Shown in pieces: positions 1 through 50,194 of a stretch of 50,194 nucleotides of DNA; within the stretch, counting starts at the first letter, position 1, and every line of letters starts with the position of its first letter. The notes beneath the pieces were generated by a model that worked only from the letters and a program-made list of their open reading frames with translations, did not search any database and was not told the origin of the DNA. The translations under genes were made by a program, and so were the position numbers. The DNA is from Elusimicrobiaceae bacterium (lineage in GTDB: Bacteria > Elusimicrobiota > Elusimicrobia > Elusimicrobiales > Elusimicrobiaceae): contig JAEEMS010000009.1 in the NCBI GenBank assembly GCA_016283355.1, positions 1-50,194 on the forward strand, read 5' to 3'.

Positions 1-3000
1 AAGAAATAGTGGCTTTGGCGTTGCTGTCGCCGTATACATCGGTGGTGGCAACGTCCGTCACGCGGTACATGTCCACCGGGAACACCGCGCTTGCGCGGTT
101 CTTGACCGAGGGGAACATCGCATCATGTGCTTCCACCACAAACCAGTATGTGCCGGGCGTGACCATGCGGCCTTGTTCGTCGCGGCCATCCCAAGACAGC
201 GTATTCATTTGTTGCGAAACGTTGGCCGTACCTTGTTTAGGCGTTAAGTAGCGCACCACTACGCCGGCTGTGTTCTGCACGGAGGCAACGGCGTTAGCGT
301 CGCGCTCTAAAGCGTATTTAAAGATGAACGGATCCAACCCGTAGGCCGTGGGGCTAGAGCCGATGGTGGAGTAGCTGACCGGTTGGATGGTAATTCCCAC
401 CAAGCCGCGTTCCACTTCTAATGTACCCACCTTATATTTAAGTGTCTTTACACCCGTAAAACATTTGTTGTTAAGATTTTCCCCACAAGGTTTCCCTGGC
501 TCAAATGTTGGCCCACCGCCACCTGCCAAATTTGTATAAGCCCCATTGTAAGGTACTTCTGCCCATAGCACATACACATAATTGCCATCCGGCATAGGAG
601 CCCCATTCATAAAGGTCTCCTCACACCCGTTCTGGGCTCTGCACACGTCTCCATTTGATTCCTTATCATTATAAGGAACGATCCTTTTACATCCACCTAC
701 TATTTGACATGTACCATCCCACCGAGATGTATAATTCATACGTCCGGAACGGTTTTCCTGGCTGCGGTATACAAGGGATCCGGTGTAAACATCACCAGCA
801 ATCTTCTTAATCCCTGGGGGCGTGCCCGTGGGGGTCGAAGAATCTGTATCAATCGCATTTCCTTTATCGGCCTCAAATACTGTACCGGGAGTATAAATTT
901 CCCAATACACGTTGGAAGATTCGGTGGGAACGTAAGAAATCGTTGCGTACGCGGTAGATTTCTTGGTAAGTCCCGTTACTTGCACATCCGTTAATTTCAA
1001 CGGGTCTAGTGAGATTTGGCGTGTAACCGCGCGGGAAAAATCAATGCCCGGCCATTCATCACGCGATTTGGCCTGAATCGTGGCCACGTAGTTCCCTGCA
1101 GGGAGCAATATGCCCGAATCGTTACGTCCGTCCCAAGAATCAAAATCTTGTAAAATTTTATCAGTTGTGTCCCCTATCATTCCTTCGCCGTTGCGCGGTT
1201 GCCAATCTACTAACAACCGGACCGGATTGGTATCAATTGTAGCCGGAGCACCCGACGGTTGGTTTGTGGTATGCTCTGTATCACCACTTGCCCACGCATA
1301 TATTGCATCATCTTTTGATTCCGCATCAAAGATAGCAATGCGTACGTCTGCATCTTTACTGAGGCGGTATACCAATGTATAAGGTTGTGCGGCTACCGGC
1401 GTAATCTTACCCACTAACGACGGCGTACTGCGTACGGTATGCACGTTGGTAACGTCCACCTGTATCGGGATTTGGTTCATGGCGGGATAGACCATCATGG
1501 AATCAAATTCAATATTACCTTGCGTGATAATACCATCGCCGGGCGTATTGGTGGCTACGCGGCCGCGGAAGGCAAACTGTCCGTTTGATTTACCCATCTC
1601 GCCGGAGTGTTCATAGCTAGCGTCCCACGAGGCACAGAACGTGATAGGTTGGAGTGTGTGGGTAGGGGCGCCGTCGTTATTGAAAAACACACAATCGGAG
1701 TGTCCTGTGCTATTCCCTACTTTACAACCGCTACAAGCTTGCCCCGTTTTCCCCGTGGCTATAACCGTACACGAAGAACAGGTAGAATTTTCGCATACAT
1801 ATTTTGCACCGATACACTCTCCCCAAGTTCCATCACCATTGTCATAAGCTTCGGAATTCGTACACCTGTAAGAACCACATTTGTAACGCTCGGGACTGGC
1901 CGTCTCGGCGCCGGAGGTACCCGGGAACAAATCAATCGTGCGGACCGGAGTAGCGGCCTCTGCGTTGTAGAGGTTTTGGTTGTTGTAATATTTTAAAATT
2001 TCAAAGCGCACCTGTTGCAACGGGAACGCAATGGAATACGTGCTTTGCCCCTGCGGCAAGTTATTACAATATACTTCCATACACAACCCCAAACAATGGT
2101 TGGGGTAAAAATTGTCTTTGGGAATATCGTTGGGGTAGGGTTGGTCGTACTCAATCAACGCGGAGGAAACCCACGGGTCCCCCGCATGCACTTCACTGGC
2201 ACCCGGGTTCGTGCTGGTTGCCGGCTGTGTGGAGTAATACGTACCGGTTGAATAGCCACCATTCGGCTGTACTTGGTTACCTTGCGGAAAGGGAGTAGTA
2301 ACAAAACTGCGTTCATCCGTTGTGGCAACAGAATAGGAAGTACCATTAAGTGTTGTAATGGTTCTTTTGAATTTAAAAGTTTTACAGACTTTTGTGGTAT
2401 CTGTTTGTGACTTGTTCCCTGTCAAAAATATAGATGCACTACTTGAATACGCAGTATTCGGTTGGCGGAGGGTAGCGAGCATATTTGCTCGACAAGAAAT
2501 GTTATCTGTTATGTTAAACGAAGTTACAACCTCCCCGTTAAGCAAAATATCGGAAGTTCCATTGGCCTCCGCTTCCCACTCAATTCCACCATCTTTAAAT
2601 GTTTCCCCTGCCGACAAATCTCTAACAGAACCTTCAAGAGCATTCCAAAACATTGCATTTCTGGTATTTGATGTAACACCGGAAGTAACAGTACCCCCAC
2701 TACCGGAACCAGATAAACAGTTATCACTCGTACAAACAACTTGTAAAATTTTACAAGGGATACCTTCTCCCTCTGTCACGCTATCCATTCCATTATCCGC
2801 ATCTAACCAAGGAAATACAAAATATTTCCCCCCTGTGGTATTGATAACTTCCCCTTCCAATTCCAGTTCATCACCGCTGATAGTAATCTTAGGATAAGGT
2901 TTGGTAACATTCGTATCTGCAGAACAACGAAGCGAATTATACCGGACGGCATCTCGCATTTCGCCACCATAATTTGTCACGGGCCTGTAATTGTTTAACT

Positions 3001-3430
3001 CATCTTGGAGGAATCCTGCCAAACTAATAATTTCCCAACCAACAGGGTTATCTTGAAACCGTGCACCCACAGTGCCTTGGGAAACAACACTCCAACGGGC
3101 CGCTGTTGATGTAGATGGGGTATTCTGCCCCGTAGGGCTGTTTGTTCCCGAAATAATGGGGTGGGTATCTTCCTGGCCTTCCCCTCCGCCATTGCCACTG
3201 GGGCCGGGGTTGGTATTCCCCGTAGTTGTGGTGTTCAACACATCACAATACATCCCCGCTAAATTGCTGGGGGAATTTTTGTAGTACACGCCAACACGTT
3301 TTACCTCTGCCGTTTGGGCGAAAACAAGCGTAGAAAAAGCCGCCAACACCGCGGCAAAAACGGCAAACAACACCGTGCTACTTACTAAATTTTTAAGTGA
3401 ATAGAGTTTGTTTGTTTTGTGCTCATTCAT
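1..3430 (-). CDS. Large exported protein with FlgD-like Ig repeats (C-terminus beyond window)
   Basis: I checked the frame codon by codon from the ATG at 3430 to the left edge and found no stop, so at least 1143 residues are encoded and the 3' end is missing. Residues 1-38 form a signal peptide: a basic start, a hydrophobic stretch (VLFAVFAAVLAAFSTLVFA) and cleavage before QTAEV. About residues 515-600 hold ten cysteines, including CENSTCSSC and ACSGC pairs, which suggests a disulfide-rich module. Three later segments match the FlgD-type Ig fold pattern: WDGRNDSG followed by LPAGNYVATIQA (about 760-785), WDGTC followed by MPDGNYVYVLWAEV (about 905-960), and WDGRDEQG followed by TPGTYWFVVEA (about 1078-1100). 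In known proteins these folds lie near the C-terminus of secreted or surface proteins. An AAAGGGAAAC ribosome site precedes the start. Cell-surface or secreted location is well supported; the function is unknown. Confidence 0.85.
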   Translation of the reverse strand, partial: MNEHKTNKLYSLKNLVSSTVLFAVFAAVLAAFSTLVFAQTAEVKRVGVYYKNSPSNLAGMYCDVLNTTTTGNTNPGPSGNGGGEGQEDTHPIISGTNSPTGQNTPSTSTAARWSVVSQGTVGARFQDNPVGWEIISLAGFLQDELNNYRPVTNYGGEMRDAVRYNSLRCSADTNVTKPYPKITISGDELELEGEVINTTGGKYFVFPWLDADNGMDSVTEGEGIPCKILQVVCTSDNCLSGSGSGGTVTSGVTSNTRNAMFWNALEGSVRDLSAGETFKDGGIEWEAEANGTSDILLNGEVVTSFNITDNISCRANMLATLRQPNTAYSSSASIFLTGNKSQTDTTKVCKTFKFKRTITTLNGTSYSVATTDERSFVTTPFPQGNQVQPNGGYSTGTYYSTQPATSTNPGASEVHAGDPWVSSALIEYDQPYPNDIPKDNFYPNHCLGLCMEVYCNNLPQGQSTYSIAFPLQQVRFEILKYYNNQNLYNAEAATPVRTIDLFPGTSGAETASPERYKCGSYRCTNSEAYDNGDGTWGECIGAKYVCENSTCSSCTVIATGKTGQACSGCKVGNSTGHSDCVFFNNDGAPTHTLQPITFCASWDASYEHSGEMGKSNGQFAFRGRVATNTPGDGIITQGNIEFDSMMVYPAMNQIPIQVDVTNVHTVRSTPSLVGKITPVAAQPYTLVYRLSKDADVRIAIFDAESKDDAIYAWASGDTEHTTNQPSGAPATIDTNPVRLLVDWQPRNGEGMIGDTTDKILQDFDSWDGRNDSGILLPAGNYVATIQAKSRDEWPGIDFSRAVTRQISLDPLKLTDVQVTGLTKKSTAYATISYVPTESSNVYWEIYTPGTVFEADKGNAIDTDSSTPTGTPPGIKKIAGDVYTGSLVYRSQENRSGRMNYTSRWDGTCQIVGGCKRIVPYNDKESNGDVCRAQNGCEETFMNGAPMPDGNYVYVLWAEVPYNGAYTNLAGGGGPTFEPGKPCGENLNNKCFTGVKTLKYKVGTLEVERGLVGITIQPVSYSTIGSSPTAYGLDPFIFKYALERDANAVASVQNTAGVVVRYLTPKQGTANVSQQMNTLSWDGRDEQGRMVTPGTYWFVVEAHDAMFPSVKNRASAVFPVDMYRVTDVATTDVYGDSNAKATIS

Positions 3431-35458: not shown

Positions 35459-35467
35459 TGTTATAAT
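35459..35467 (+). promoter_or_regulatory. Extended -10 promoter of the sugar permease gene
   Basis: TG-T-TATAAT, a perfect -10 hexamer (35462-35467) with the extended TG one base upstream; no good -35 is visible. Transcription should start near 35474, 22 bases before the ATG at 35496. Confidence 0.65.
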
Positions 35468-35495
35468 GGAAGTAAGCCATTTCAAAGGAGAATTT

Positions 35496-36821
35496 ATGCA
35501 GACAGAAAGACCCACTAAAAATTTTTTACAAATTTTATATATGTGTTTAGGATTTTTTGGAATTCAGTTCGGCTGGGCGCTCCAGATGAACAACATGAGT
35601 GCCATTTATTCCCGTCTGGGAGCCAGTGAATCCGAGCTACCTATTTTGTGGTTAGCCGCACCGGTGACGGGGTTACTGGTACAACCCATTGTAGGATATT
35701 TCAGTGACCGCACTTGGTGCCGATTGGGCAGAAGACGCCCCTACTTTTTAGGCGGTGCCATTTTTTCTGTCTTTGCACTCTTCTTAATGCCGCAAGCTAC
35801 CGCCGTTTGGATGGCCGCAATTACTTTGTGGATATTGGATACTTCTGTTAATGTCAGCATGGAACCTTTCCGCGCGTTTGTCGGGGATATTTTACCGGAA
35901 CACCAACGCAAAACCGGATACGCAATGCAAAGCGTGATGATTGGCGCGGGAGCCGTCATCGCTTCCTTCTTACCGCAGATTTTGACTAATTTAGGAGTCA
36001 GCACCGAAGCGGCCATCGGCCATATTCCTAACACCGTACGTTATTCTTTTTTCATCGGAGCCATCGTACTGTTAACAGCGATCATCGCCACCGTAGTTAC
36101 CACTCCTGAATATCCACCGGCCGATATGGAAGAATTTAAAAAGTTACAAAAACAATCTAAAAGCTTCTTTTTAACGCTCAAAGAAATGTGGAATGCTTTT
36201 GTTACTATGCCGCAAACTATGTGCCGTCTAGCGGTGGTGCAATTTTTTACGTGGGCAGCGTTTATGTTGATGTGGGTTTATTTTACCCCCGGCATTGCTT
36301 CCGGTGTCTTCCATGCACTCCCCGGAACACCGGAATATGAGGTAGCGGCCACGTGGGGCAGTTCCTGTTTTGGGATTTATAATGGAGTTGCTTTCATCTT
36401 TTCGTTTGTGTTGTTATGGCTGACAACACGTTTCTCCGCTAAAAAAATTCATATTGTTTGTTTAACAATCGGCGGAATCGGCTTGGCATCCTTGGGTACC
36501 ACCTTATTCGGCATACAATTTACCAAATACGGACTTATTTTCCCCATGGTATGTATCGGAATTGCGTGGAGCAGCATTTTGTCCATGCCCTATGCCATGC
36601 TCTCCAATGCATTACCCGCAGAAAAAATGGGATTCTATATGGGCGTATTTAATTTCTTCATTGTGATTCCTCAAATTTGTGTAAATTTATTTTTCGGGCC
36701 TTTCATGAAATACGCCTTGGGTGGTAGTACAATTGCAGCGGTTGGTGTCGGCGGAATCAGTTTGCTCATCGCAGCCGTAGCCACTTTACGGGTACATGAA
36801 CCCCTTTCTACGCAGGAGTAA
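35496..36821 (+). CDS. MFS sugar transporter (SLC45/GPH-like)
   Basis: A 441-residue permease with about twelve membrane helices. The N-terminal part FGIQFGWALQMNNMSAIYSRLGA and the loop GYFSDRTWCRLGRRRPYFLGG are typical of the sucrose/maltose MFS group related to SLC45, which import disaccharides with protons. I choose the ATG at 35496, directly after AAAGGAGAATTT; an earlier in-frame ATG at 35466 overlaps the -10 box. malQ follows after six bases, so maltose or maltodextrin is the likely substrate. That substrate is inferred from context. Confidence 0.85.
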   Translation: MQTERPTKNFLQILYMCLGFFGIQFGWALQMNNMSAIYSRLGASESELPILWLAAPVTGLLVQPIVGYFSDRTWCRLGRRRPYFLGGAIFSVFALFLMPQATAVWMAAITLWILDTSVNVSMEPFRAFVGDILPEHQRKTGYAMQSVMIGAGAVIASFLPQILTNLGVSTEAAIGHIPNTVRYSFFIGAIVLLTAIIATVVTTPEYPPADMEEFKKLQKQSKSFFLTLKEMWNAFVTMPQTMCRLAVVQFFTWAAFMLMWVYFTPGIASGVFHALPGTPEYEVAATWGSSCFGIYNGVAFIFSFVLLWLTTRFSAKKIHIVCLTIGGIGLASLGTTLFGIQFTKYGLIFPMVCIGIAWSSILSMPYAMLSNALPAEKMGFYMGVFNFFIVIPQICVNLFFGPFMKYALGGSTIAAVGVGGISLLIAAVATLRVHEPLSTQE

Positions 36822-41172: not shown

Positions 41173-41197
41173 AGCGCCAAGGGGGCCCCTTGGCGCT
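41173..41197 (-). terminator. Rho-independent terminator of the 265-residue membrane protein gene
   Basis: On the minus strand AGCGCCAAGG (41197-41188), a five-base loop and CCTTGGCGCT (41182-41173) form a perfect ten-base stem, followed by TTTATTTTAG. Confidence 0.88.
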
Positions 41198-41215: not shown

Positions 41216-42013
41216 TTAAATTTGAGGAATTTCCGGCAGTGAATCTTCCACAGCCGCGGCAGAAGCAGCGGGTTTATCCTCTTCGAACAAATCCGGCTGG
41301 TTGAAAAAGAAAATCAATGCTGCCACAAACAGAACAATATGATTGATAATCCCCCACAATAAGAGTACAAACGCGCGGACCGTTTCACTAATAAAAATAC
41401 TGGGCAGCAAGGTAAGGCCAAAACCAACGGTAGCCACTATAAACCACACCCACCAGTAACTCAGCAAGAGGGAAGCCCCGTTTGCTAATGCTTGACGGCG
41501 GGAGGGGTTTATAGCAAAACCCAACCCAAACAACACTAAGCTGATTTCCCACACCATCATGTACAGTGCGTTGGGAATACTGGACGTCATAAACGGCGGC
41601 ACCAACCAAATAGAGGAAAAATTATCGTTCCAAAATAGGGAAAGACAAATCACAATTCCCAAAACCACTTGCAGTGTCCATAATTTCCAACCACAACGCA
41701 GCGTAAGCCCTATTAACTCCCAACGGCTGTGTTGGTGTGGCGTTACTTTGTTGAGAAGCACGTACATAATCCATAAGAAAATCAGGTCTAGCCCTCCAAC
41801 GGCAAGCGCACTGTAAATAGCCAACAAAGCATTTTGCGTAAGACCGTAGATCACATCGTGATTGGCAAAGAAAGACACCAGTGGCCCCAATAAGACCGCC
41901 GCCAGCCAGCCGAAAAAAACGGGGAAAAATTGTAGCAGTATAAACCCTGTTACAACCCCAAACCCTGCCCAAAAAAACAAAGACACCCAAGATGGAACTT
42001 TTCTTTCACTCAT
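41216..42013 (-). CDS. Six-helix membrane protein, unknown
   Basis: 265 residues with about six hydrophobic helices (roughly 12-35, 60-85, 105-128, 145-168, 180-205, 215-240), then a polar Ala- and Glu-rich tail of about 25 residues. The pattern of Trp-rich helices (YWWVWFIVATVGFGL) resembles Yip1-like or other small integral membrane proteins, but I do not recognise the family with confidence. It starts 12 bases after the stop of the 1344-residue exported protein and ends at a strong terminator, so it is the last gene of that unit and may assist that protein. Confidence 0.75.
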   Translation of the reverse strand: MSERKVPSWVSLFFWAGFGVVTGFILLQFFPVFFGWLAAVLLGPLVSFFANHDVIYGLTQNALLAIYSALAVGGLDLIFLWIMYVLLNKVTPHQHSRWELIGLTLRCGWKLWTLQVVLGIVICLSLFWNDNFSSIWLVPPFMTSSIPNALYMMVWEISLVLFGLGFAINPSRRQALANGASLLLSYWWVWFIVATVGFGLTLLPSIFISETVRAFVLLLWGIINHIVLFVAALIFFFNQPDLFEEDKPAASAAAVEDSLPEIPQI

Positions 42014-42025
42014 ACGTATATATTA

Positions 42026-45000
42026 TCATTTTACCTTTAAAAGTTGGGCTTTTATAGCGGTTAAATCTTTTATCAAGGTATTAATGTCATTGGAAACACC
42101 GGAACCTACCTCCAAATAAGAGGATAAATTTTGTTCCAACGGTTTGAACACTTCCGTATAATCAACATATTCAGGCCCGGGTCTAAATTTGGCAATTGTT
42201 TGCTGGGCGGCAGAGACGGAGTTGTCCAACTCCACTCTTATCGCTTGCAATTCGTTTATCTGCGCATCCAATTTTTGCGTTAAATTTGCCAAATTTTCTT
42301 TGGATCCCGTTTCCAATGCGGCCACCGCATCGTCCATAATTTTTTCTGTTCTGTTGAGTGTGGGGGCCAAACGGTTGGCGGCGTTCACTATATTCTCTAT
42401 CGGTTCAGAACGCAGTATAGTTCTATATTGCTGAGCCACGGTAGAAACAGTGCCTCTTTGCGGGAATTGCCTGAATGCTTGCCCTTCCAATAAGGAAATG
42501 TCATGCTCCAAAGCTGGCACTCCTTCATGTAACGGGCGGGCATCTTGAATAATTTTTCCCGATGCTTGTGAAAATGATTGGGATCCTTGTTTTACAAACT
42601 GTATCGGAGAAAGCTCCGGTTGCGGTTCTACCTTCTTCGGAGAAGTAGAATTCTGCACGTGTGATGGACGCTCCGCTGAACCAAAAGATTCCCTTCCTGC
42701 CGTTTTCGCCATCTTTCCTTGTGCTTCGGAGGCATTTGCCATCTGGAGAGAAGCACTTTCTTCCGCTTTTTTCCATCCTTCGGGATCACTTCTTTTCCAC
42801 ACGTCATCCTTTAAGATCTCTTTATATTCTTCGGTTCTATTCTTCAGGCGCAAATTTGCCCGCTCCAACTCCGACATAGAACCGCTCGATTCTTGTTGCA
42901 AATTATTTTGATGACGCTGTTCATGGAAAGCTTTCCTTTCTGCCGCTTTCGCTATTTTCCCCTGTGCTTCGGAGGCATTTGCCATCTCGAGATAAGCACT
43001 TTCTTCCGCTTTTCTCCATCCTTCGGGATCACTTCTTTTCCACGCGTCATCCTTTAAGATCTCTTTATATTCTTCGGTTCTATTCTTCAGACGCAAATCT
43101 GCTCGCTCCAACTCCGACATAGAACCGCTCGATTCTTGTTGCAAATTATTTTGATGACGCTGTTCATGGAAAGCTTTCCTTTCACTCACCAACTGCTCAG
43201 CGCCCTGAGCTGGGTCCGATGCACCACCATCCGCAGCACGGACTCCTTGGGTACGGGCTCTTTTGGCACCTGTACCCATAGCTGATGCATGGCCTTGATA
43301 GGTAGACACTTGCGAACGCGTCTCCTTCAACAAATTAGCCAATTTCTTATCTTTTTTTGCCACCTCATCCAAAAATGCCAACGTTTCTTTTCCGAACGTA
43401 CCGGAAGGAGTACGCACGGAATATCCTGACACTAACGTAACCAAATCTTGCCGACTCAGTTTCCCTACATGAGTTTGTCCTTGGGCATCTACAAATTCAA
43501 CTTCCAAATTTCCATTAGAATCGAAACCGAAGGAATTGGGAACTTGTCTGTCCCCCGCGGCCGCGCCACGAGCTGCTCTCGAAGACCCCCCCGCGGCCCG
43601 AGCATCTTGTGCGGTACTTGTACCCGATGTACCGCCCGCCCGGGATGTTCCTTGCCCGGCGTCTGTACCTGCAGATAGTGCCTCTTGGTTGCGGATTCTT
43701 TCTACGTTTTCAAAGGCAATTTCTTCAAGTTTATTCATACTCTTGGCCGATAATTCAACTTCTCTTGTCATAACCCCTTCCGGCCCTAAATAGCTAACCC
43801 TCGCGCGGGACGGGTTAATTCTCTCTACAAAAATCACCTTGTCGATCTCAATACCACCTTTTCTCAAAACTCTTTGAATTAAATGTCTTTGGAAATTTAA
43901 TTTTTTCGTCGGAATGGGAATTCCCATTGCAGCCATATTCCTTGTTCCTTCAACCCAACCATCAGCGAATGCAACGACATTATCGTACCAAGAACCATGT
44001 ACTACATTATCCCCCTGATTCTTTACCTTATTATCCAAACGAGCAGTTACCTCTTCTTTTTGCGCAGCATGGGTACTTACCCCGCCATTGGAATTTTTCA
44101 CGGCCGGACTTTCAAATTCCAACACTTTTTCTTCCCCGGTGACATTGCCTTCAAGATGAGGTGTTTGTGCACCCACCCTTTCTCCTCCAACACCAGAACC
44201 TTCAGTGCGAGATATCCGTGGATTCATCGGTTCTTCCACCGAAGCGGATGGTTTCTTCACCGGGGTTGTCGACGGAGTTCCTGGTGCTTTCGCTTCTACT
44301 TTTGGGGTGGATTTTCCGCCAATACGCGCTTCTTTCTTGATGTTCCGTGCGGTTTGTTTAGTTACCTTCCACGCTTTGGACCCCATACGGCTTACACCTC
44401 GGCGCAGCCCCTTTACCGTGCTCCAAATTCCCCTTCCGATGGCAGGGCCTGCCGCCAACATACCGGGCAGAGAAAACAACAACAACGCCGTATCGGCCAT
44501 TTCACCACCCGCCTTTGTTTTCTTTAACATATTATATTGCTTGGCTTTTTCTTTAAATTTTTCTCCGCCATATGTTGCAAGACCTTTATTTTCCTTGGCC
44601 AAGGCATTATAATATCGCGCGACAATACGGCGGATACGTGTTTGCGTACCAGCATTAATATCCCAAAAGTCCCCCATAAGAAGTATGATCAATTTATACA
44701 TTCCTTCTTTTTCACCATTGGGAACAATATACCCCGGATATGTGTCAGAGGCAGACAAAATTCCCACTACTACCGGCCAATGTCCATAAAAATCCATCTT
44801 TGACTTCGTCTTTGTGGTAACAATGGCCTTTCCATAGTCGTCATAATATGTTCTACTTTTGTATGGGTTCTTAGCATATTGGATAGCATTCCACATAATT
44901 TTCCTAGCTAATTTTCCCGCACCGGTACTCTGATTATCACGCACTTCCGCCCCAATGATATGGCCAATTTCTTCAAACGAGTTTGTGTATGGATATTGAA

Positions 45001-46060
45001 TGCCCACTTTTTGATATGGAGCTTTTCCGAACGTTTTAGGGTTGGCTGCACATGTATTCTCATCTACATAGCTAAATCCTTCGTTCGTTTCATTATAATA
45101 TCTGGTAGCATTACGTGCTCTTTCTTGTGAACCAGCATATATATTTGTGGCTACCCAATTCACAGAGACAAGATCCAAAAGGTGAGCACCGCGATTTACT
45201 TCTGGTTTTGCTACATTGGTTAAAAAATTGTCGATGTTATTCCAAGCACCCAACAACACTAAAGCCGAAACAGCACCCGTTATTACTGTAGCCCCATCCG
45301 AACTCTTCCACGCCTTGTTCAAATAGTGAACAATAGTGGCAATAGCTCGTTTCTTTTCCGCTTCATTCCCGAATTTTTTGGCAAGCAAAGCTATACCAAT
45401 GAGGGCATCTACTTCCTGCGCACAATGTTGATTTTGTACAGCCGTAATTTGAGGAATTCCGGCAGCGGTCCAACCCGATTTACCACACGTAATGGTGGAT
45501 GTAACATCGTAAAAATATTGCCGCAAGACGGCAACGTCCCCTTTCGTATTCCCCTCTTCTTGATAAACACCCCAAGACGAAATCAAGTTCAACATATCCC
45601 CAGCGACTCGTTTGATAGCTTTTCCGTTGGTGTATAACCCCTTTCTATTGAGGACAATACGATGAATTCCCCCTTGCGCTGCAGCAATCGAAGGCCCGCA
45701 ATATTGAGTGTTATTCGCTCCTTTTACACAAATTTCTTTTTGAGGTTTGTCTGGATTTGCACCCACTAATTGTAAATCCGAAATTACACACATCGGAGGA
45801 ACTTCATTGGGAATAAGACAATCTGTCCCAACTACACGAGATGCTTTTTCCACTTCCGAAATTTGCTCTTCGGCTGCTTTCTTTTTTTGCACCAATGCAT
45901 TGTCAATATTTTTTGATTGTTTCTTTGTAACAATAGGGGTGGGCGCTGATTCCAGCCGGCGGGGACCCTTAAGCCCTTGAGCATAAACCGGGAAGGTATT
46001 TGCAAATAAGAAAATAAAAGCAATAAAAAGGGATACACCCTTTTCCAAAGCAGAACGCAT
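42026..46060 (-). CDS. Giant exported protein of unknown family
   Basis: 1344 residues. A clear signal peptide (VSLFIAFIFLFANTFPVYAQG, cleavage near 28) is followed by a Cys-containing region (about 80-230), a mostly helical part (about 200-500), and a hydrophobic stretch TALLLFSLPGMLAAGPAIG (about 515-535) then a basic segment. The middle is low complexity in Pro, Ser, Thr, Gly and Ala (about 575-840). Residues about 960-1120 hold two nearly identical 81-residue copies (ERKAFHEQRHQNN...). The C-terminus is coiled coil. I recognise no family. It has a good promoter and an AGGGAG site, and a membrane protein gene follows. The architecture suggests an envelope-spanning or surface protein; a passenger with repeats is possible. 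Confidence 0.85.
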   Translation of the reverse strand: MRSALEKGVSLFIAFIFLFANTFPVYAQGLKGPRRLESAPTPIVTKKQSKNIDNALVQKKKAAEEQISEVEKASRVVGTDCLIPNEVPPMCVISDLQLVGANPDKPQKEICVKGANNTQYCGPSIAAAQGGIHRIVLNRKGLYTNGKAIKRVAGDMLNLISSWGVYQEEGNTKGDVAVLRQYFYDVTSTITCGKSGWTAAGIPQITAVQNQHCAQEVDALIGIALLAKKFGNEAEKKRAIATIVHYLNKAWKSSDGATVITGAVSALVLLGAWNNIDNFLTNVAKPEVNRGAHLLDLVSVNWVATNIYAGSQERARNATRYYNETNEGFSYVDENTCAANPKTFGKAPYQKVGIQYPYTNSFEEIGHIIGAEVRDNQSTGAGKLARKIMWNAIQYAKNPYKSRTYYDDYGKAIVTTKTKSKMDFYGHWPVVVGILSASDTYPGYIVPNGEKEGMYKLIILLMGDFWDINAGTQTRIRRIVARYYNALAKENKGLATYGGEKFKEKAKQYNMLKKTKAGGEMADTALLLFSLPGMLAAGPAIGRGIWSTVKGLRRGVSRMGSKAWKVTKQTARNIKKEARIGGKSTPKVEAKAPGTPSTTPVKKPSASVEEPMNPRISRTEGSGVGGERVGAQTPHLEGNVTGEEKVLEFESPAVKNSNGGVSTHAAQKEEVTARLDNKVKNQGDNVVHGSWYDNVVAFADGWVEGTRNMAAMGIPIPTKKLNFQRHLIQRVLRKGGIEIDKVIFVERINPSRARVSYLGPEGVMTREVELSAKSMNKLEEIAFENVERIRNQEALSAGTDAGQGTSRAGGTSGTSTAQDARAAGGSSRAARGAAAGDRQVPNSFGFDSNGNLEVEFVDAQGQTHVGKLSRQDLVTLVSGYSVRTPSGTFGKETLAFLDEVAKKDKKLANLLKETRSQVSTYQGHASAMGTGAKRARTQGVRAADGGASDPAQGAEQLVSERKAFHEQRHQNNLQQESSGSMSELERADLRLKNRTEEYKEILKDDAWKRSDPEGWRKAEESAYLEMANASEAQGKIAKAAERKAFHEQRHQNNLQQESSGSMSELERANLRLKNRTEEYKEILKDDVWKRSDPEGWKKAEESASLQMANASEAQGKMAKTAGRESFGSAERPSHVQNSTSPKKVEPQPELSPIQFVKQGSQSFSQASGKIIQDARPLHEGVPALEHDISLLEGQAFRQFPQRGTVSTVAQQYRTILRSEPIENIVNAANRLAPTLNRTEKIMDDAVAALETGSKENLANLTQKLDAQINELQAIRVELDNSVSAAQQTIAKFRPGPEYVDYTEVFKPLEQNLSSYLEVGSGVSNDINTLIKDLTAIKAQLLKVK
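42699..43184 (-). repeat. Tandem duplication of 243 bp inside the giant exported protein
   Basis: Two in-frame copies, 42699-42941 and 42942-43184, each 243 bases (81 codons), differ at only about 15 positions, several of them silent. Each encodes a helical, highly charged unit with HEQRHQNNLQQESSGSMSEL and WKRSDPEGW. The near identity at DNA level points to a recent duplication. Confidence 0.93.
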
Positions 46061-46120: not shown

Positions 46121-46744
46121 CTATTTTCCGATAGCCACGGAAAACTGAAACCCCGGGATTAGGGTCGTAGTGGATAACGTAATGGAAGGACAGCCCAATT
46201 GATTGTAGATTTCTTGCGCGCGGCCAAAAAATTGGACATTCCCGCCAACGCACCGAATTTCAAAGCTATTGAGCGTAAGCCCCGTGCCCAACAATTTAAC
46301 AACGGATTCTTTTTGCGTCCAAAGCGCGGTTAAAAATGTATCCGTATCTTCCGTTAGTTCCGACGGATGAAAGAAGTCCTGTTTCCACGCATTTATACGG
46401 TGAGCCACTTTTTCTAAATCAATCCCGATATAACGGGCCTGCGGGGCGGCAGCGGCCACCGCATACCCGTGACTGTGCGTAATACTGAAAGGAAGATTAG
46501 GTGATTTTTCCTCTAAAACAAGTTCTGGTTTGCCGCTTTTTTCCTGTGGGAGGACTTCGATTTGTTTAAAAGCATAAGGAGTGCATTGAGTAATAACTTT
46601 TTTTAAAGCAATTCTGCCCCCGAGCCATTCCGTCCTTCGTTTGGGGAGTTTAAGCGTATCATAATACGCTTGTTCCCGTTCACTTAAAACGTCTTGGGCC
46701 GGGGGCAGTGTCGTTAAATCAATTACTTCTACTAAATAATCCAT
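46121..46744 (-). CDS. 4'-phosphopantetheinyl transferase (Sfp type)
   Basis: A 207-residue enzyme that moves phosphopantetheine from CoA onto carrier proteins. It has the family motifs LSEREQAYYDTLKLPKRRTEWLGGRIALKK, PFSITHSHGYAVAAAA, the magnesium site YIGIDLEKV and LWTQKESVVKLLGTG (WxxKES, normally KEA). Length is close to Sfp. I place the start at the ATG at 46744, six bases after the megasynthase stop with a TAAGGTG site; a GTG at 46789 would overlap by 40 bases. Its position right after a synthase with carrier domains makes that synthase the likely substrate. Confidence 0.93.
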   Translation of the reverse strand: MDYLVEVIDLTTLPPAQDVLSEREQAYYDTLKLPKRRTEWLGGRIALKKVITQCTPYAFKQIEVLPQEKSGKPELVLEEKSPNLPFSITHSHGYAVAAAAPQARYIGIDLEKVAHRINAWKQDFFHPSELTEDTDTFLTALWTQKESVVKLLGTGLTLNSFEIRCVGGNVQFFGRAQEIYNQLGCPSITLSTTTLIPGFQFSVAIGK

Positions 46745-46749
46745 GCACC

Positions 46750-49700
46750 TTATTGACCAATGGCCTGGTAACCGTGGATTTCCACCCACACATTGCCTTG
46801 TGCATCAAACACGTAGGCATCGTGTAACGTTTTACCATCGGCAGTAGTCCCTTTGTTTACACCGTACAAAAATAATTGTGCGGGCGGCACTTGGCGGTTC
46901 AATATGGCCACTTCGGAAATACCGTCCGGCAATGTCATTTTGTGGGCGACGGACATATCTTGAAAACCGCAGCATTGGAAAGCCGCTTCAATAAGCATCG
47001 GATTGGCTAACAACGTACGAGGGCCGTCGTTCCATTGCGGGCGCGGCGTCGTGTGATACGCTGCCAATGAAACTTTTTCGTCCACGTGTAAAATTCCGTT
47101 TAGCACTTGGAAGGAAGGACCGTGGAAGTATTTCTGGTAAATCTCCTCTTTGCTAACCGTGGTAACACCGGCAATTCCGGCCATTGCATCCGCTTTCACG
47201 CTGTCCCACGTAGAAACAAAATTTTCCAACGTTTGGGCTGTAAAATGGCGGCGGGTATTGCCCATTTTAATTCCCTTACTATTGATAAAGTCCGATTCAA
47301 TTTCCATATCGGCCACGGAACCGTTGGCTTTACCGATTACACGCACCGCTTGCGGACGATTGCGTAAAAGTTTGATCGGCAAATAGAAATGTACATTTTT
47401 CAACCCTTGCGGTACAACACCCGTAAGTGCGGTGGCTGTTTCCATAAATGTTTCAATTCCCATCACGCCCGGAACATACGGCGTTCCTTCAATGGCGTGA
47501 TCGGCCAGGTACGGATCCGATTCCAAATTAAATTCTTTTTCCAAATGGATTTCCGCACCTTTCTGCAACGAAGCTACCTTCCCCAAAAAGTGGGTAGCAT
47601 CCGCACCTGCCGCGGGGGTTGGAGCCGGCTGCGCAGCCGGTGCTACCGCCTTTTTAACCGTGGTTTCTTTTTTAGACGGAGTTGCTTGAATTGTCACGGA
47701 AATTTTGGGAGAAGCACTTCCCCCTTTCGGGGTATCATCCTGCGGAGTTGTAGCGGGAACATCGATCCCGGCTTCTTCCCAATCTATTTTGAGTTGGTGA
47801 TCCCAATCCAACTTTCCAAGTGAACCGGTCAATACAATTTCCGGCACTCTACCGTATACAATTTCATCCAAGAAAAGCTGCATTCCGTCTTCCGGATCTA
47901 CAAAATCCACTCCGTTGGAACGCAAGAATGTTTCCACGCCCGCACGCACACCCATACCTACATTTTTGTAAGCACTCATCGCAATGCTGATGGCGCGGTA
48001 CCCTTGGTTAGTCAGCGAGAATGCCGATTTAGCCAAGTAATCGTTTGCGCTGGCATAGTCGCTTTGCCCCAGGTTTCCGTATTTACCGGCAATAGAAGAG
48101 GCAAAAGCGAAGAACCCGCTATCGCGCACGATGTTGTTGGCCAAGAACGTACCAAAGCTGGTGGCTTTCACATCAAAAATACGATAATACTCTGCCGGGT
48201 CTTTATCGTAAATCAGTTTGGAACGTTCCAATCCGGCAAAATGGATAAGTCCGTCCACACGGCCGTTTTTGGCTTTGATTTTCGTGCAAACCTCTTTTAC
48301 CATAGCTGCGTTGGTAACGTCGCAGTGGTGATATTCCACTTCACTGCCTAGATCACGCAGTTTTTGTAAATTGTTATAAAGCGTGATGGAATCTTTCACA
48401 CGGCCAAAAGCACGTTCCAACAACACAGGCGTTGCTTTTTGCGTCGGATTCGCTTTTAGATCTTCCCAGATTTGCTTTTTAAGGGCGGCCAATTCTGCCT
48501 CGTTCATCTTGGCCCACAACGGCGTTTTTTCTTGAATTTCAATAATATCCAAGATGATGATTTTGCTATGGTACTGCGCCGCGATTTTTTGACTGAGCAT
48601 CGCGCCGATTCCGCGACCGGAACCTGTAAAGATAACGGTTTTACCGGTCAAATCAAAGTTCTTTACGCTGCGGTCCAACCGAGTCGGCAACGACAAGATA
48701 GTGGAGCGTACCCCGCCGCGCGTACCCACCATTAGGCGCATATCTCCGTGCAAGATTTCATCCATCGTTTTTTGTGCCATTTCGTCAGGTGTAGCAGTCG
48801 GTTCAAAATCCATCAATTTAGAGATGGCTCCCGTACGTTCATAAACATCCTTGCGGAAACAGGTCGTTCCACCCATCAAGGCGCCTACAATCGGGTTAAA
48901 CTCATCCTTTGTGGTATAACCGAAATTTCCGTCTACTTTGGTATTTACAGCAAAGAACGTGTCTGCATCCGTACGGTTGGAAAGTCCTTTCTCAAACACA
49001 CGCAGTGCTATGAACAATGGCATAACGTATTTCGTTAACTCGTTGTGTGCGCTGAGTTTTTTATCAAACTTCTTAACCGTAGCACCCAATAGGTACACAA
49101 TCCCTTGTATGTTGGGATCTTCCGCCGCGTACGCTTGCAAAGCGGACTGGGTCTCTTCATACGATTCCCAATTCATGATGGTCGTATTTTTGCTGCGGGT
49201 TTTGAGTGTGGTGAAAATATGATATTTTACACCCAATTCCTTAAACTCTTCTTGGTATGCTTTGATAAGTTGTGAATTATCCGCAAACAAAAGCACCGTG
49301 CGGTCTTTTGATAAGCGTCTATTTTCCCGCTCTGACAACGGAGCATCGACAACCGTGGTTACAAAGCGCAATTTCTTCTCGTGGCAATGTTCACCTTGAT
49401 ATCCTTCCCGTTCCGGACGCTCCGCAAGTGATTCTCTTTTTTCAATCGGGGCGGTAGGATTGGTTACCAATGCATCGGCTTGCGGACCTGTTACTTTTTC
49501 CGCTACCGTAGCTTGAGCCGATTGTACGGTCGGCGTCGATTTTTCTACCGTAACGGGGGCCGGTTGTACCACCGGAGCCGGCGTTACCGGAGACGTAACC
49601 ACAGGTTGAACCGTAGGAGCTGCCATAGCGGAAGATTGACCCACATTCGCTAAAGCAAAGTTAATACAATGGCGAATCGTCGGATAATCTTTGAGTTGGA

Positions 49701-50194
49701 TACCTTCTTGTTGGGCAATACCATAATGTTCACGCATGGCGGCGAACAATTCCGCTTGCTTGACCGTATCGATACCCAAATCGGCTTCCATATCCAAATC
49801 GAGTTCCAGCATATCTTCCGGATAACCCGTTTTTTCTGCCACCATGTTCACTATTTCTTTGGTAACGGTAGCTTCATCCAACGCTTTAGTTGATTTTACC
49901 ACAGCCGGTTGCACAACGGGTGCGGATTGTGGTGCCGGTGCAGGTTGCGCCGTTAATATAGGTTGCACCACAGGAGCCGATGTAGCTGCGGGTTGTCCGG
50001 CATTGGCTAATACAAATTTAATGCAATGGCGAATCGTGGGATAATCTTTAAGTTGGATACCTTCTTGTTGGGCAATACCGTAATGTTCACGCATGGCGGC
50101 GAACAATTCCGCCTGCTTGACCGTATCGATACCCAAATCGGCTTCCATATCCAAATCGAGTTCCAGCATATCTTCCGGATAACCCGTTTTTTCT
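46750..50194 (-). CDS. PfaA-like polyketide/fatty acid megasynthase: ACP-ACP-KR-DH (N-terminus beyond window)
   Basis: The frame is open to the right edge, so about 1147 C-terminal residues are seen and the true start lies outside. In order: two carrier domains separated by Pro/Ala/Val-rich linkers, a ketoreductase (about 48900-47820) with GSGRGIGAM and the active-site FASSIAGKYGNLGQSDYASAND, a long insert between its two Rossmann parts as in PUFA synthases, and a double-hotdog dehydratase with DHAIEGTPYVPG (catalytic His). In the second hotdog the usual Asp is Glu (LIEAAFQ). Both carriers read LGIDTVKQAE, so Thr stands where the phosphopantetheine Ser is expected. Ketosynthase and acyltransferase domains would lie upstream. 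A PUFA-like or other long-chain product is likely, the exact product unknown. The phosphopantetheinyl transferase follows. Confidence 0.88.
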   Translation of the reverse strand, partial: EKTGYPEDMLELDLDMEADLGIDTVKQAELFAAMREHYGIAQQEGIQLKDYPTIRHCIKFVLANAGQPAATSAPVVQPILTAQPAPAPQSAPVVQPAVVKSTKALDEATVTKEIVNMVAEKTGYPEDMLELDLDMEADLGIDTVKQAELFAAMREHYGIAQQEGIQLKDYPTIRHCINFALANVGQSSAMAAPTVQPVVTSPVTPAPVVQPAPVTVEKSTPTVQSAQATVAEKVTGPQADALVTNPTAPIEKRESLAERPEREGYQGEHCHEKKLRFVTTVVDAPLSERENRRLSKDRTVLLFADNSQLIKAYQEEFKELGVKYHIFTTLKTRSKNTTIMNWESYEETQSALQAYAAEDPNIQGIVYLLGATVKKFDKKLSAHNELTKYVMPLFIALRVFEKGLSNRTDADTFFAVNTKVDGNFGYTTKDEFNPIVGALMGGTTCFRKDVYERTGAISKLMDFEPTATPDEMAQKTMDEILHGDMRLMVGTRGGVRSTILSLPTRLDRSVKNFDLTGKTVIFTGSGRGIGAMLSQKIAAQYHSKIIILDIIEIQEKTPLWAKMNEAELAALKKQIWEDLKANPTQKATPVLLERAFGRVKDSITLYNNLQKLRDLGSEVEYHHCDVTNAAMVKEVCTKIKAKNGRVDGLIHFAGLERSKLIYDKDPAEYYRIFDVKATSFGTFLANNIVRDSGFFAFASSIAGKYGNLGQSDYASANDYLAKSAFSLTNQGYRAISIAMSAYKNVGMGVRAGVETFLRSNGVDFVDPEDGMQLFLDEIVYGRVPEIVLTGSLGKLDWDHQLKIDWEEAGIDVPATTPQDDTPKGGSASPKISVTIQATPSKKETTVKKAVAPAAQPAPTPAAGADATHFLGKVASLQKGAEIHLEKEFNLESDPYLADHAIEGTPYVPGVMGIETFMETATALTGVVPQGLKNVHFYLPIKLLRNRPQAVRVIGKANGSVADMEIESDFINSKGIKMGNTRRHFTAQTLENFVSTWDSVKADAMAGIAGVTTVSKEEIYQKYFHGPSFQVLNGILHVDEKVSLAAYHTTPRPQWNDGPRTLLANPMLIEAAFQCCGFQDMSVAHKMTLPDGISEVAILNRQVPPAQLFLYGVNKGTTADGKTLHDAYVFDAQGNVWVEIHGYQAIGQ
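49650..50194 (-). repeat. Tandem acyl-carrier domain repeats
   Basis: Two carrier domains with a 357-base (119-codon) period; the Thr codons of the LGIDT motif lie at 49765-49767 and 50122-50124. The domain bodies are almost identical in DNA and protein, while the linkers differ. The second copy is cut by the window edge, so more copies may follow upstream. Confidence 0.9.

What the first reader, a model, noticed from the sequence alone, without database searches (positions are those of the whole stretch)
42026..46060. 1344-residue exported protein of no known family with a partner membrane gene
Signal peptide, Cys-rich start, hydrophobic segment in the middle, long low-complexity linkers, duplicated helical units and a C-terminal coiled coil; a six-helix membrane protein gene follows 12 bases later and ends at a strong terminator. 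The two may form an unknown envelope system.
Basis: partly seen in the sequence, partly recalled or inferred. Interest (0 to 1): 0.55.

Follow-up and report, generated by a model that had tools for sequence, protein, structure and literature searches.

The report
Fast-changing giant exported protein pair
A gut bacterium makes a very large exported protein together with a small membrane protein; the two genes stay together in the related genomes found to have the membrane gene, change unusually fast, and belong to an apparently undescribed family in which one shared front part is joined to many different tails.

Summary
In detail: a 1344-aa exported protein on the minus strand (42026-46060), 12 bases later a 265-aa polytopic membrane protein (41216-42013), then a strong terminator-like hairpin. 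Neither has a significant Pfam, NCBIfam, PADLOC or PDB match. Linkage is conserved: in all 19 of 340 phylum genomes with a partner match, a large exported-protein gene is adjacent (14 intact, same strand), one gene away (1) or at a contig edge or break (4). The giant's head (residues ~100-523, HEAT/ARM-like in the predicted model, two near-invariant cysteines) was found only in one family of Elusimicrobiota. Tails are exchanged: MFS, trypsin-like, and more weakly caspase/legumain-like and receiver-like modules; in one single-contig genome three genes share a 2,994-bp block without a mismatch between diverged ends. At the window's locus flanking genes are 72-98% identical to a sister species, the partner 42%, the head 28%, the tail unalignable. 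Tails almost lack cysteine, suggesting export of the whole chain. Best reading: a modular, rapidly diversifying envelope scaffold whose head docks on an inner-membrane partner with a CysZ-like predicted fold. Localisation, docking and function are inferred, not shown.

The parts
42026..46060 (-). giant exported protein, 1344 aa
45977..46060 (-). signal peptide, residues 1-28
   Evidence: read by eye from the translation
44492..45763 (-). conserved HEAT/ARM-like head, residues about 100-523
   Evidence: family alignments; model; structural comparison
45422..45487 (-). stretch from Cys192 to Cys213, near-invariant cysteine pair of the family
   Evidence: invariant in 13 of 13 rows, 90% or more of 41 rows
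44435..44491 (-). hydrophobic neck, residues 524-542, followed by a basic stretch
42029..44254 (-). cysteine-free low-complexity tail, residues 603-1344; no relative in the 89 other genomes of the family searched
42684..43183 (-). 243-bp tandem duplication in the tail
41216..42013 (-). partner polytopic membrane protein, 265 aa, CysZ-like predicted fold
41173..41197 (-). terminator-like hairpin closing the two-gene unit

Best explanation
The pair is a modular envelope scaffold. The giant is exported by Sec and its signal peptide removed; the head folds outside the cytoplasm as a helical solenoid held by disulfides; the hydrophobic and basic neck lies at the inner membrane and docks on the co-transcribed six-helix partner; the long cysteine-free tail projects into the periplasm or to the surface and carries the exchangeable working part. 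In paralogs without the partner a membrane part or an enzyme is fused into the tail instead (MFS transporter, trypsin-like, caspase/legumain-like). Heads can be spread or homogenised by recombination while tails and, at this locus, the whole pair diversify fast, as expected of proteins facing hosts, rivals or phages. Shown by sequence: export signal, linkage, shared head, exchanged tails, identical head block in one genome, hypervariability. Inferred: disulfides, co-transcription, location of the tail, docking on the partner, selective cause.
For: Linkage in 19 of 19 genomes with a partner match, in two genera, with a 4-base overlap of the two genes in four genomes of genus g2. Head family: matches in 48 of 340 phylum genomes, all in family f1 (some of these rows match only the signal-peptide end of the model). 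Tail cysteine 35 in 40,991 residues (0.085%) against 0.93% in heads (40 proteins), 0.57% in 59 other exported and 1.54% in 127 cytosolic proteins of the same loci. The five head proteins with the caspase-like site have only 1 or 2 Cys in the tail (L034, L096, L036: 1; L097, L098: 2). Same locus, sister species G140: flanks 72-98% identical, partner 42%, head 28%, tails not alignable (G140's tail is cut by a contig end). RpoB distance 0.03 against 2.28 (head) and 1.21 (partner). Correlated divergence of head and partner: partial r 0.43 given RpoB, permutation p 0.007, 9 genomes. Linked heads cluster on the tree: 2 changes, shuffled mean 8.3, 0 of 500 as low. Three loci of one contig share 2,994 bp at 100% between diverged ends. 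Polytopic tails (4 or more hydrophobic segments): 0 of 8 linked, 12 of 25 unlinked complete giants, Fisher p 0.03, not corrected for relatedness; three of the 12 share the identical head block.
Against: Net charge rises after the neck in 36 of 42 members (2 ties), which would favour a spanning neck with a cytosolic tail, although positive residues alone are more numerous there in only 20 of 42. A receiver-like stretch in the tail of one relative (L033; below the cut-offs) would be odd outside the cytosol; a second, in L034, I saw only by eye and Pfam did not report it. Three unlinked paralogs nest within the linked clade, so head and partner can part. Head homology is not detectable in 5 of the 19 linked giants (G237, G096, G243, G244, G132) and weak in 3 (hhalign probability 29 and 45%). 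The long identical block was seen in one genome only; in 10 others with two or more loci tested it was absent. Some tails are stable: those of two species pairs are 73-76% identical. Low-complexity sequence is itself poor in Cys. No experiment.
Confidence: 0.4

Rival explanations
1. Transmembrane receptor: head outside, neck a true membrane span, tail in the cytosol as signalling or effector part, partner a co-receptor.
For: Hydrophobic neck with KD 1.6 or more in 37 of 42 and higher net charge after it in 36 of 42; receiver-like stretch in one relative (E 6e-4, below the Pfam cut-off).
Against: Tails almost lack Cys, unlike cytosolic proteins; several necks carry R or K in the middle; in the g2 giants the segment that seems to correspond holds acidic residues (by eye).
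Confidence: 0.2
2. Polymorphic toxin or contact-dependent effector: constant delivery head, variable killing tail.
For: Related heads with different tails, identical head block in three loci, peptidase-like tails, fast divergence.
Against: In the window the only gene before the terminator is the partner, and the partner is kept with very different tails; a whole MFS domain as a tail part; no PADLOC hit for 6 proteins. Immunity genes in the relatives' neighbourhoods were not searched for.
Confidence: 0.12
3. Solute uptake system: partner is a CysZ-type permease, giant head a binding protein.
For: Partner model matches CysZ best (Z 10.3, 188 residues, rmsd 5.0); MFS fused in another member.
Against: No sequence similarity to CysZ or EI24 (and no EI24 match in G000 or G049, which both have the partner); Z under 13 for a helical protein can be a common arrangement (note); a permease would not be expected to change this fast (general knowledge).
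Confidence: 0.1
4. Weakly constrained lineage-specific protein with little function, drifting fast.
For: Low identity, low-complexity tails, broken copies in G090.
Against: Head features and cysteines kept, pair kept together, long open frames in many genomes.
Confidence: 0.06

Closest known systems
CysZ sulfate channel (EI24 family), for the partner
   Same: Size and predicted fold: best structural matches 6d79 (Z 10.3) and 3tx3 (Z 9.8), the next group at 6.8; yeast PNS1 also scores 9.8
   Different: No detectable sequence relation; linked to a giant protein gene
HEAT/ARM solenoids (importins, adaptins), for the head
   Same: Helical solenoid; best Z 10.5 over 264 residues, rmsd 5.0; weak HEAT and DNA-alkylation-type hits in single members
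   Different: Exported, with cysteines; no significant sequence match; Foldseek found nothing at E 0.001 or less
Rhs and other polymorphic toxin systems (recalled)
   Same: Constant head, exchangeable tails, homogenised head block in one genome
   Different: Tails of hundreds to thousands of residues that can include a transporter, and a conserved membrane partner at some loci; no immunity gene identified
Giant bacterial surface proteins (e.g. Apilactobacillus Giant1-5; start of abstract seen)
   Same: Very large, exported, lineage-restricted
   Different: Shared head domain and, at some loci, a linked membrane gene; catalytic and transporter modules in tails

Membership tests
CysZ / EI24 (PF07264) | sequence match to the family profile | tested here: not met
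   no Pfam hit for the window protein at E 1; of 13 members scanned (window included) none matched EI24 at E 0.1, one matched DUF594 at 0.054; no EI24 match in G000 or G049; hhalign with E. coli CysZ probability 0.8%
CysZ / EI24 (PF07264) | CysZ fold | tested here: inconclusive
   VIA-align Z 10.3 and 9.8 to two CysZ structures, below the level considered safe for helical proteins; Foldseek alone gave no hit at E 0.001
CysZ / EI24 (PF07264) | sulfate flux | not testable with these tools
   needs reconstitution
HEAT/ARM repeat superfamily (head) | helical solenoid fold | tested here: inconclusive
   model pTM 0.77, best Z 10.5
HEAT/ARM repeat superfamily (head) | sequence match to repeat profiles | tested here: inconclusive
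   no hit for the window head; HEAT_PBS in 2, HEAT_2 in 1, DNA_alkylation in 2 of 41 members, best E 0.0017
Polymorphic toxin system | constant head with exchangeable tails | tested here: met
Polymorphic toxin system | toxin tail with cognate immunity gene next to it | tested here: inconclusive
   no known toxin domain in the window tail and no gene but the partner before the terminator; relatives' neighbours were not searched for immunity genes
Clan CD cysteine peptidase (tails of 8 relatives, not the window) | His-Gly and Cys-x-x-Gly motif (recalled) | tested here: met
   H, G, C, G invariant in 8 of 8; these rows were collected by similarity to one another
Clan CD cysteine peptidase (tails of 8 relatives, not the window) | significant profile match | tested here: inconclusive
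   Peptidase_C13 in 4 of 8, best E 0.01; NCBIfam caspase_w_EACC1 in 1 of the 2 such proteins scanned, E 2e-4, 20.9 bits against a cut-off of 140; all 10 PDB hits are legumain-type but E 0.17 or worse
Anti-phage defence system | match to PADLOC models | tested here: not met
   0 hits for 6 proteins at E 0.01

The most novel reading that the evidence does not exclude
A cassette system of giant envelope proteins peculiar to Elusimicrobiaceae: one helical head, moved or homogenised among loci by gene conversion, mounts many alternative tails (peptidase, transporter, sensor, coiled scaffold), and at some loci head and a dedicated six-helix membrane dock co-diverge rapidly as a surface under outside attack. 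It would be a new kind of evolvable envelope machinery in a phylum with hardly any genetics.
Probability: 0.25. Interest if true: 0.78.

Novelty: new variant of a known kind. Interest (0 to 1): 0.56.

Why it matters
It turns two orphan genes into a defined, testable family: a shared head, a dedicated membrane partner and exchangeable tails that include a transporter and peptidases, in gut Elusimicrobiota whose envelope biology is little studied. The single-contig genome with three identical head blocks gives a direct handle on how such giants are assembled, and the hypervariable locus points to contact with hosts, rivals or phages.

Tried and rejected
Membership in a known family: Pfam, NCBIfam, PADLOC and PDB searches of both proteins, and Pfam and PDB searches of their alignments, gave nothing significant. 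The first scan of the genome collection with the single protein confirmed none of 15 candidates; the alignment gave 12 loci, titled Elusimicrobiaceae (2), Elusimicrobiales (6), Elusimicrobia (1), Elusimicrobium sp. (1) and 'uncultured bacterium' (2). Viral contigs: 16 candidates, none confirmed. EI24 in 60 phylum genomes: 2 matches, both under the cut-off; one lies inside a 2615-aa ORF of another make-up, the other is a 286-aa gene with no ORF over 708 aa in the 17 kb read. Partner profile against giant tails, to see whether polytopic tails are fused partners: best E 1.4. A shared 62-residue repeat module links 8 relatives but not demonstrably the window tail: hhalign E 0.03 to 0.04 at best against 0.052 for the best of 20 shuffles of one stretch. 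Long identical blocks between paralogs of 10 other genomes: none, best 68.5% over 1411 bp among the long ones. A homologous head in L114 and in the 837-aa protein of L033: not detected. My first view of the neck as a clean membrane span was dropped, since several members have R or K inside it.

Papers: searches (1481 papers hold a term, 30 listed; 932, 12 listed; 5628, 12 listed; 519, 8 listed; 78, 15 listed). None of the listed titles or abstract starts describes this family. Passages read: PMC11573180 (huge proteins; [quoted passage not shown] The E. minutum genome paper was not seen. Absence from print is claimed only for what these listings showed.
Full report
What is there. The window (the first 50,194 bases of contig 15 of a 1.40-Mb, 29-contig genome) holds, on the minus strand, a 1344-codon gene (42026-46060) with a signal peptide, then 12 bases later a 265-codon polytopic membrane gene (41216-42013), closed by a strong terminator-like hairpin at 41197-41173. 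Upstream lie a 4'-phosphopantetheinyl transferase and a multidomain polyketide-type synthase, downstream a carboxyl transferase, all on the same strand. The genus is that of records titled Elusimicrobiaceae and Elusimicrobiales: contigs of G140, G144, G193, G221 and G202 have the lengths of titled contigs.

Relatives. A search with the single protein found head relatives in 8 of 198 phylum genomes, all in the window's genus. With an alignment of 13 heads, 48 of 340 phylum genomes matched, all in one family and three genera; the weakest rows match only the signal-peptide end, so the number with a true head is smaller. A script over the fetched loci recovered 42 proteins with the head, from 485 to 5370 residues, some cut by contig ends. 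In 60 genomes of the class 6 matched, all of the same family.

The head. In a 41-row alignment two G and two D are invariant and two Cys are kept in 90% or more (C192 and C213 of the window protein, invariant in 13 of 13). The predicted model (pLDDT 75.6, pTM 0.77, mostly unreliable after residue 476 of the 591-residue query) is mostly helical. Foldseek gave no PDB hit at E 0.001 or less; the second-look aligner ranks HEAT/ARM proteins at the top, Z up to 10.5, which for repeats may mean only a common arrangement. A neck follows, hydrophobic at KD 1.3 or more in 41 of 42 and at 1.6 or more in 37 of 42 (the window's is 1.55); net charge is higher after it in 36 of 42, two ties, but positive residues alone are more numerous in only 20 of 42.

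The tails. Blast clustering splits them into one mixed cluster of 26, some smaller ones and singletons; the window tail is a singleton and has no relative in the 89 other genomes of the family searched. Modules above the curated cut-off: Trypsin_2 in L122 and L123 and MFS_1 in L165. Weaker: MFS_1 in L166 and L112, a clan CD-type domain in 8 proteins with His-Gly and Cys-x-x-Gly invariant, a receiver-like domain in L033, a kinase-like stretch in L116 just under its cut-off. Tails of 40 proteins hold 35 Cys in 40,991 residues. The comparison sets, made with a simple signal-peptide pattern, gave 0.57% for 59 exported and 1.54% for 127 cytosolic proteins; ORFs there were called mechanically, so these are rough, and the exported set contains at least two partner-linked giants.

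Exchange. G034, a single contig of 1,643,562 bp (its size fits what I recall for Elusimicrobium minutum; not verified), has three head genes with identical scores. The DNA shows one 2,994-bp block identical in all three, without a mismatch; outside it the 5' ends and the tails diverge, L165 and L166 staying alike somewhat further. This is what recent gene conversion or cassette transfer leaves; an assembly error cannot be excluded. Ten other genomes with two or more loci tested show no such block.

Partner and linkage. The alignment of 13 partners finds 19 of 340 phylum genomes, in two genera. In 14 a large exported-protein gene is directly next to it on the same strand (G000, G208, G144, G193, G067, G049, G221, G202, G076, G226, G237, G096, G243, G244). 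In G140 the two lie at two contig edges that fit one locus; in G154 one gene lies between; in G132 they stand head to head, the giant cut by the contig end; in G218 and G090 only the start of the giant is left near the contig edge, and in G090 both genes look broken. The giant comes first in the window, G208, G226, G154 and, by the contig edges, G140; the partner first in most others. The head is recognised in 9 of these giants, weakly in G076 and the G154/G226 pair (hhalign E 2e-4 and 6e-4, probability 45 and 29%, against E 0.2 to 0.47 for three controls), and not in the four g2 giants or G132 (E 0.07 and 0.03), although G132's tail matches the L030 tail at 52%. The partner model is confident (pLDDT 90) and its best structural match is CysZ; sequence gives no support.

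Speed. Window against G140: carboxyl transferase 98%, synthase 84%, the transporter-like gene at 35466-36821 82%, sigma factor 78%, phosphopantetheinyl transferase 75%, glucanotransferase 72%, but partner 42% and head 28%. The window giant's best hit in G140 by BLAST is in fact the partnerless paralog L027, 28.5%. Against G208 flanks are 60-91%, partner 38%, head 30%. In G193 against G221 most neighbours are 73-97% beside 50% for both members; in G144 against G067 the neighbours compared are only 45-63% identical, with 62 and 66% for the pair, so that comparison shows no contrast. The partnerless paralogs of the window species group are also fairly fast, 47-51%. Head and partner distances correlate (r 0.67), less after removing RpoB distance (partial r 0.43, p 0.007, 9 genomes). 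Linked heads group on the tree with three unlinked paralogs inside.

Reading. Export signal, linkage, head-tail exchange and speed are shown by sequence. A scaffold with an outside tail and a membrane dock accounts for most of this; the receptor reading is kept alive by charge and the receiver-like domain, the toxin reading by head-tail exchange. That complete giants with the partner have no polytopic tail (0 of 8) while 12 of 25 without it do (p 0.03) suggests membrane parts supplied in trans or in cis, but shared ancestry alone could give it.

Noticed in passing
window 46121-50169: 4'-phosphopantetheinyl transferase next to a multidomain PKS-type synthase (KR, DH and carrier domain in Pfam); the G140 version is a 2771-aa ORF.
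   Followed up: no
L026 5546-6652: In the window's own genome a second, partnerless head protein (646 aa) is preceded by an exported protein with a HELGH zinc-peptidase-like motif (motif from recall).
   Followed up: no
L114 4598-9934: A third very large exported protein (1778 aa) of the window genome without a detectable head.
   Followed up: partly
L122 4984-7977, L165 3984-6977, L166 3580-6573: Three giants of one contig share a 2,994-bp block at 100% identity; the L165 tail contains an MFS domain above the Pfam cut-off.
   Followed up: partly
L028 9231-12073: Recent internal tail duplication, 1413 bp at 99.2%.
   Followed up: no
L033 1111-6977: Two exported giants in tandem, one with a caspase-like, one with a receiver-like C-terminal part.
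   Followed up: partly
L038, L041, L042, L033 (837 aa): These exported giants end in Trp at the very C-terminus (VW, QW, TW, VW).
   Followed up: no
L028 6108-6530 and L030 9963-10385: A small gene with a lipoprotein-like start precedes the partner in both genomes.
   Followed up: no
window 5-3430: Another large ORF (at least 1142 aa, running off the window) with a FlgD_ig-type domain near its cut end.
   Followed up: no
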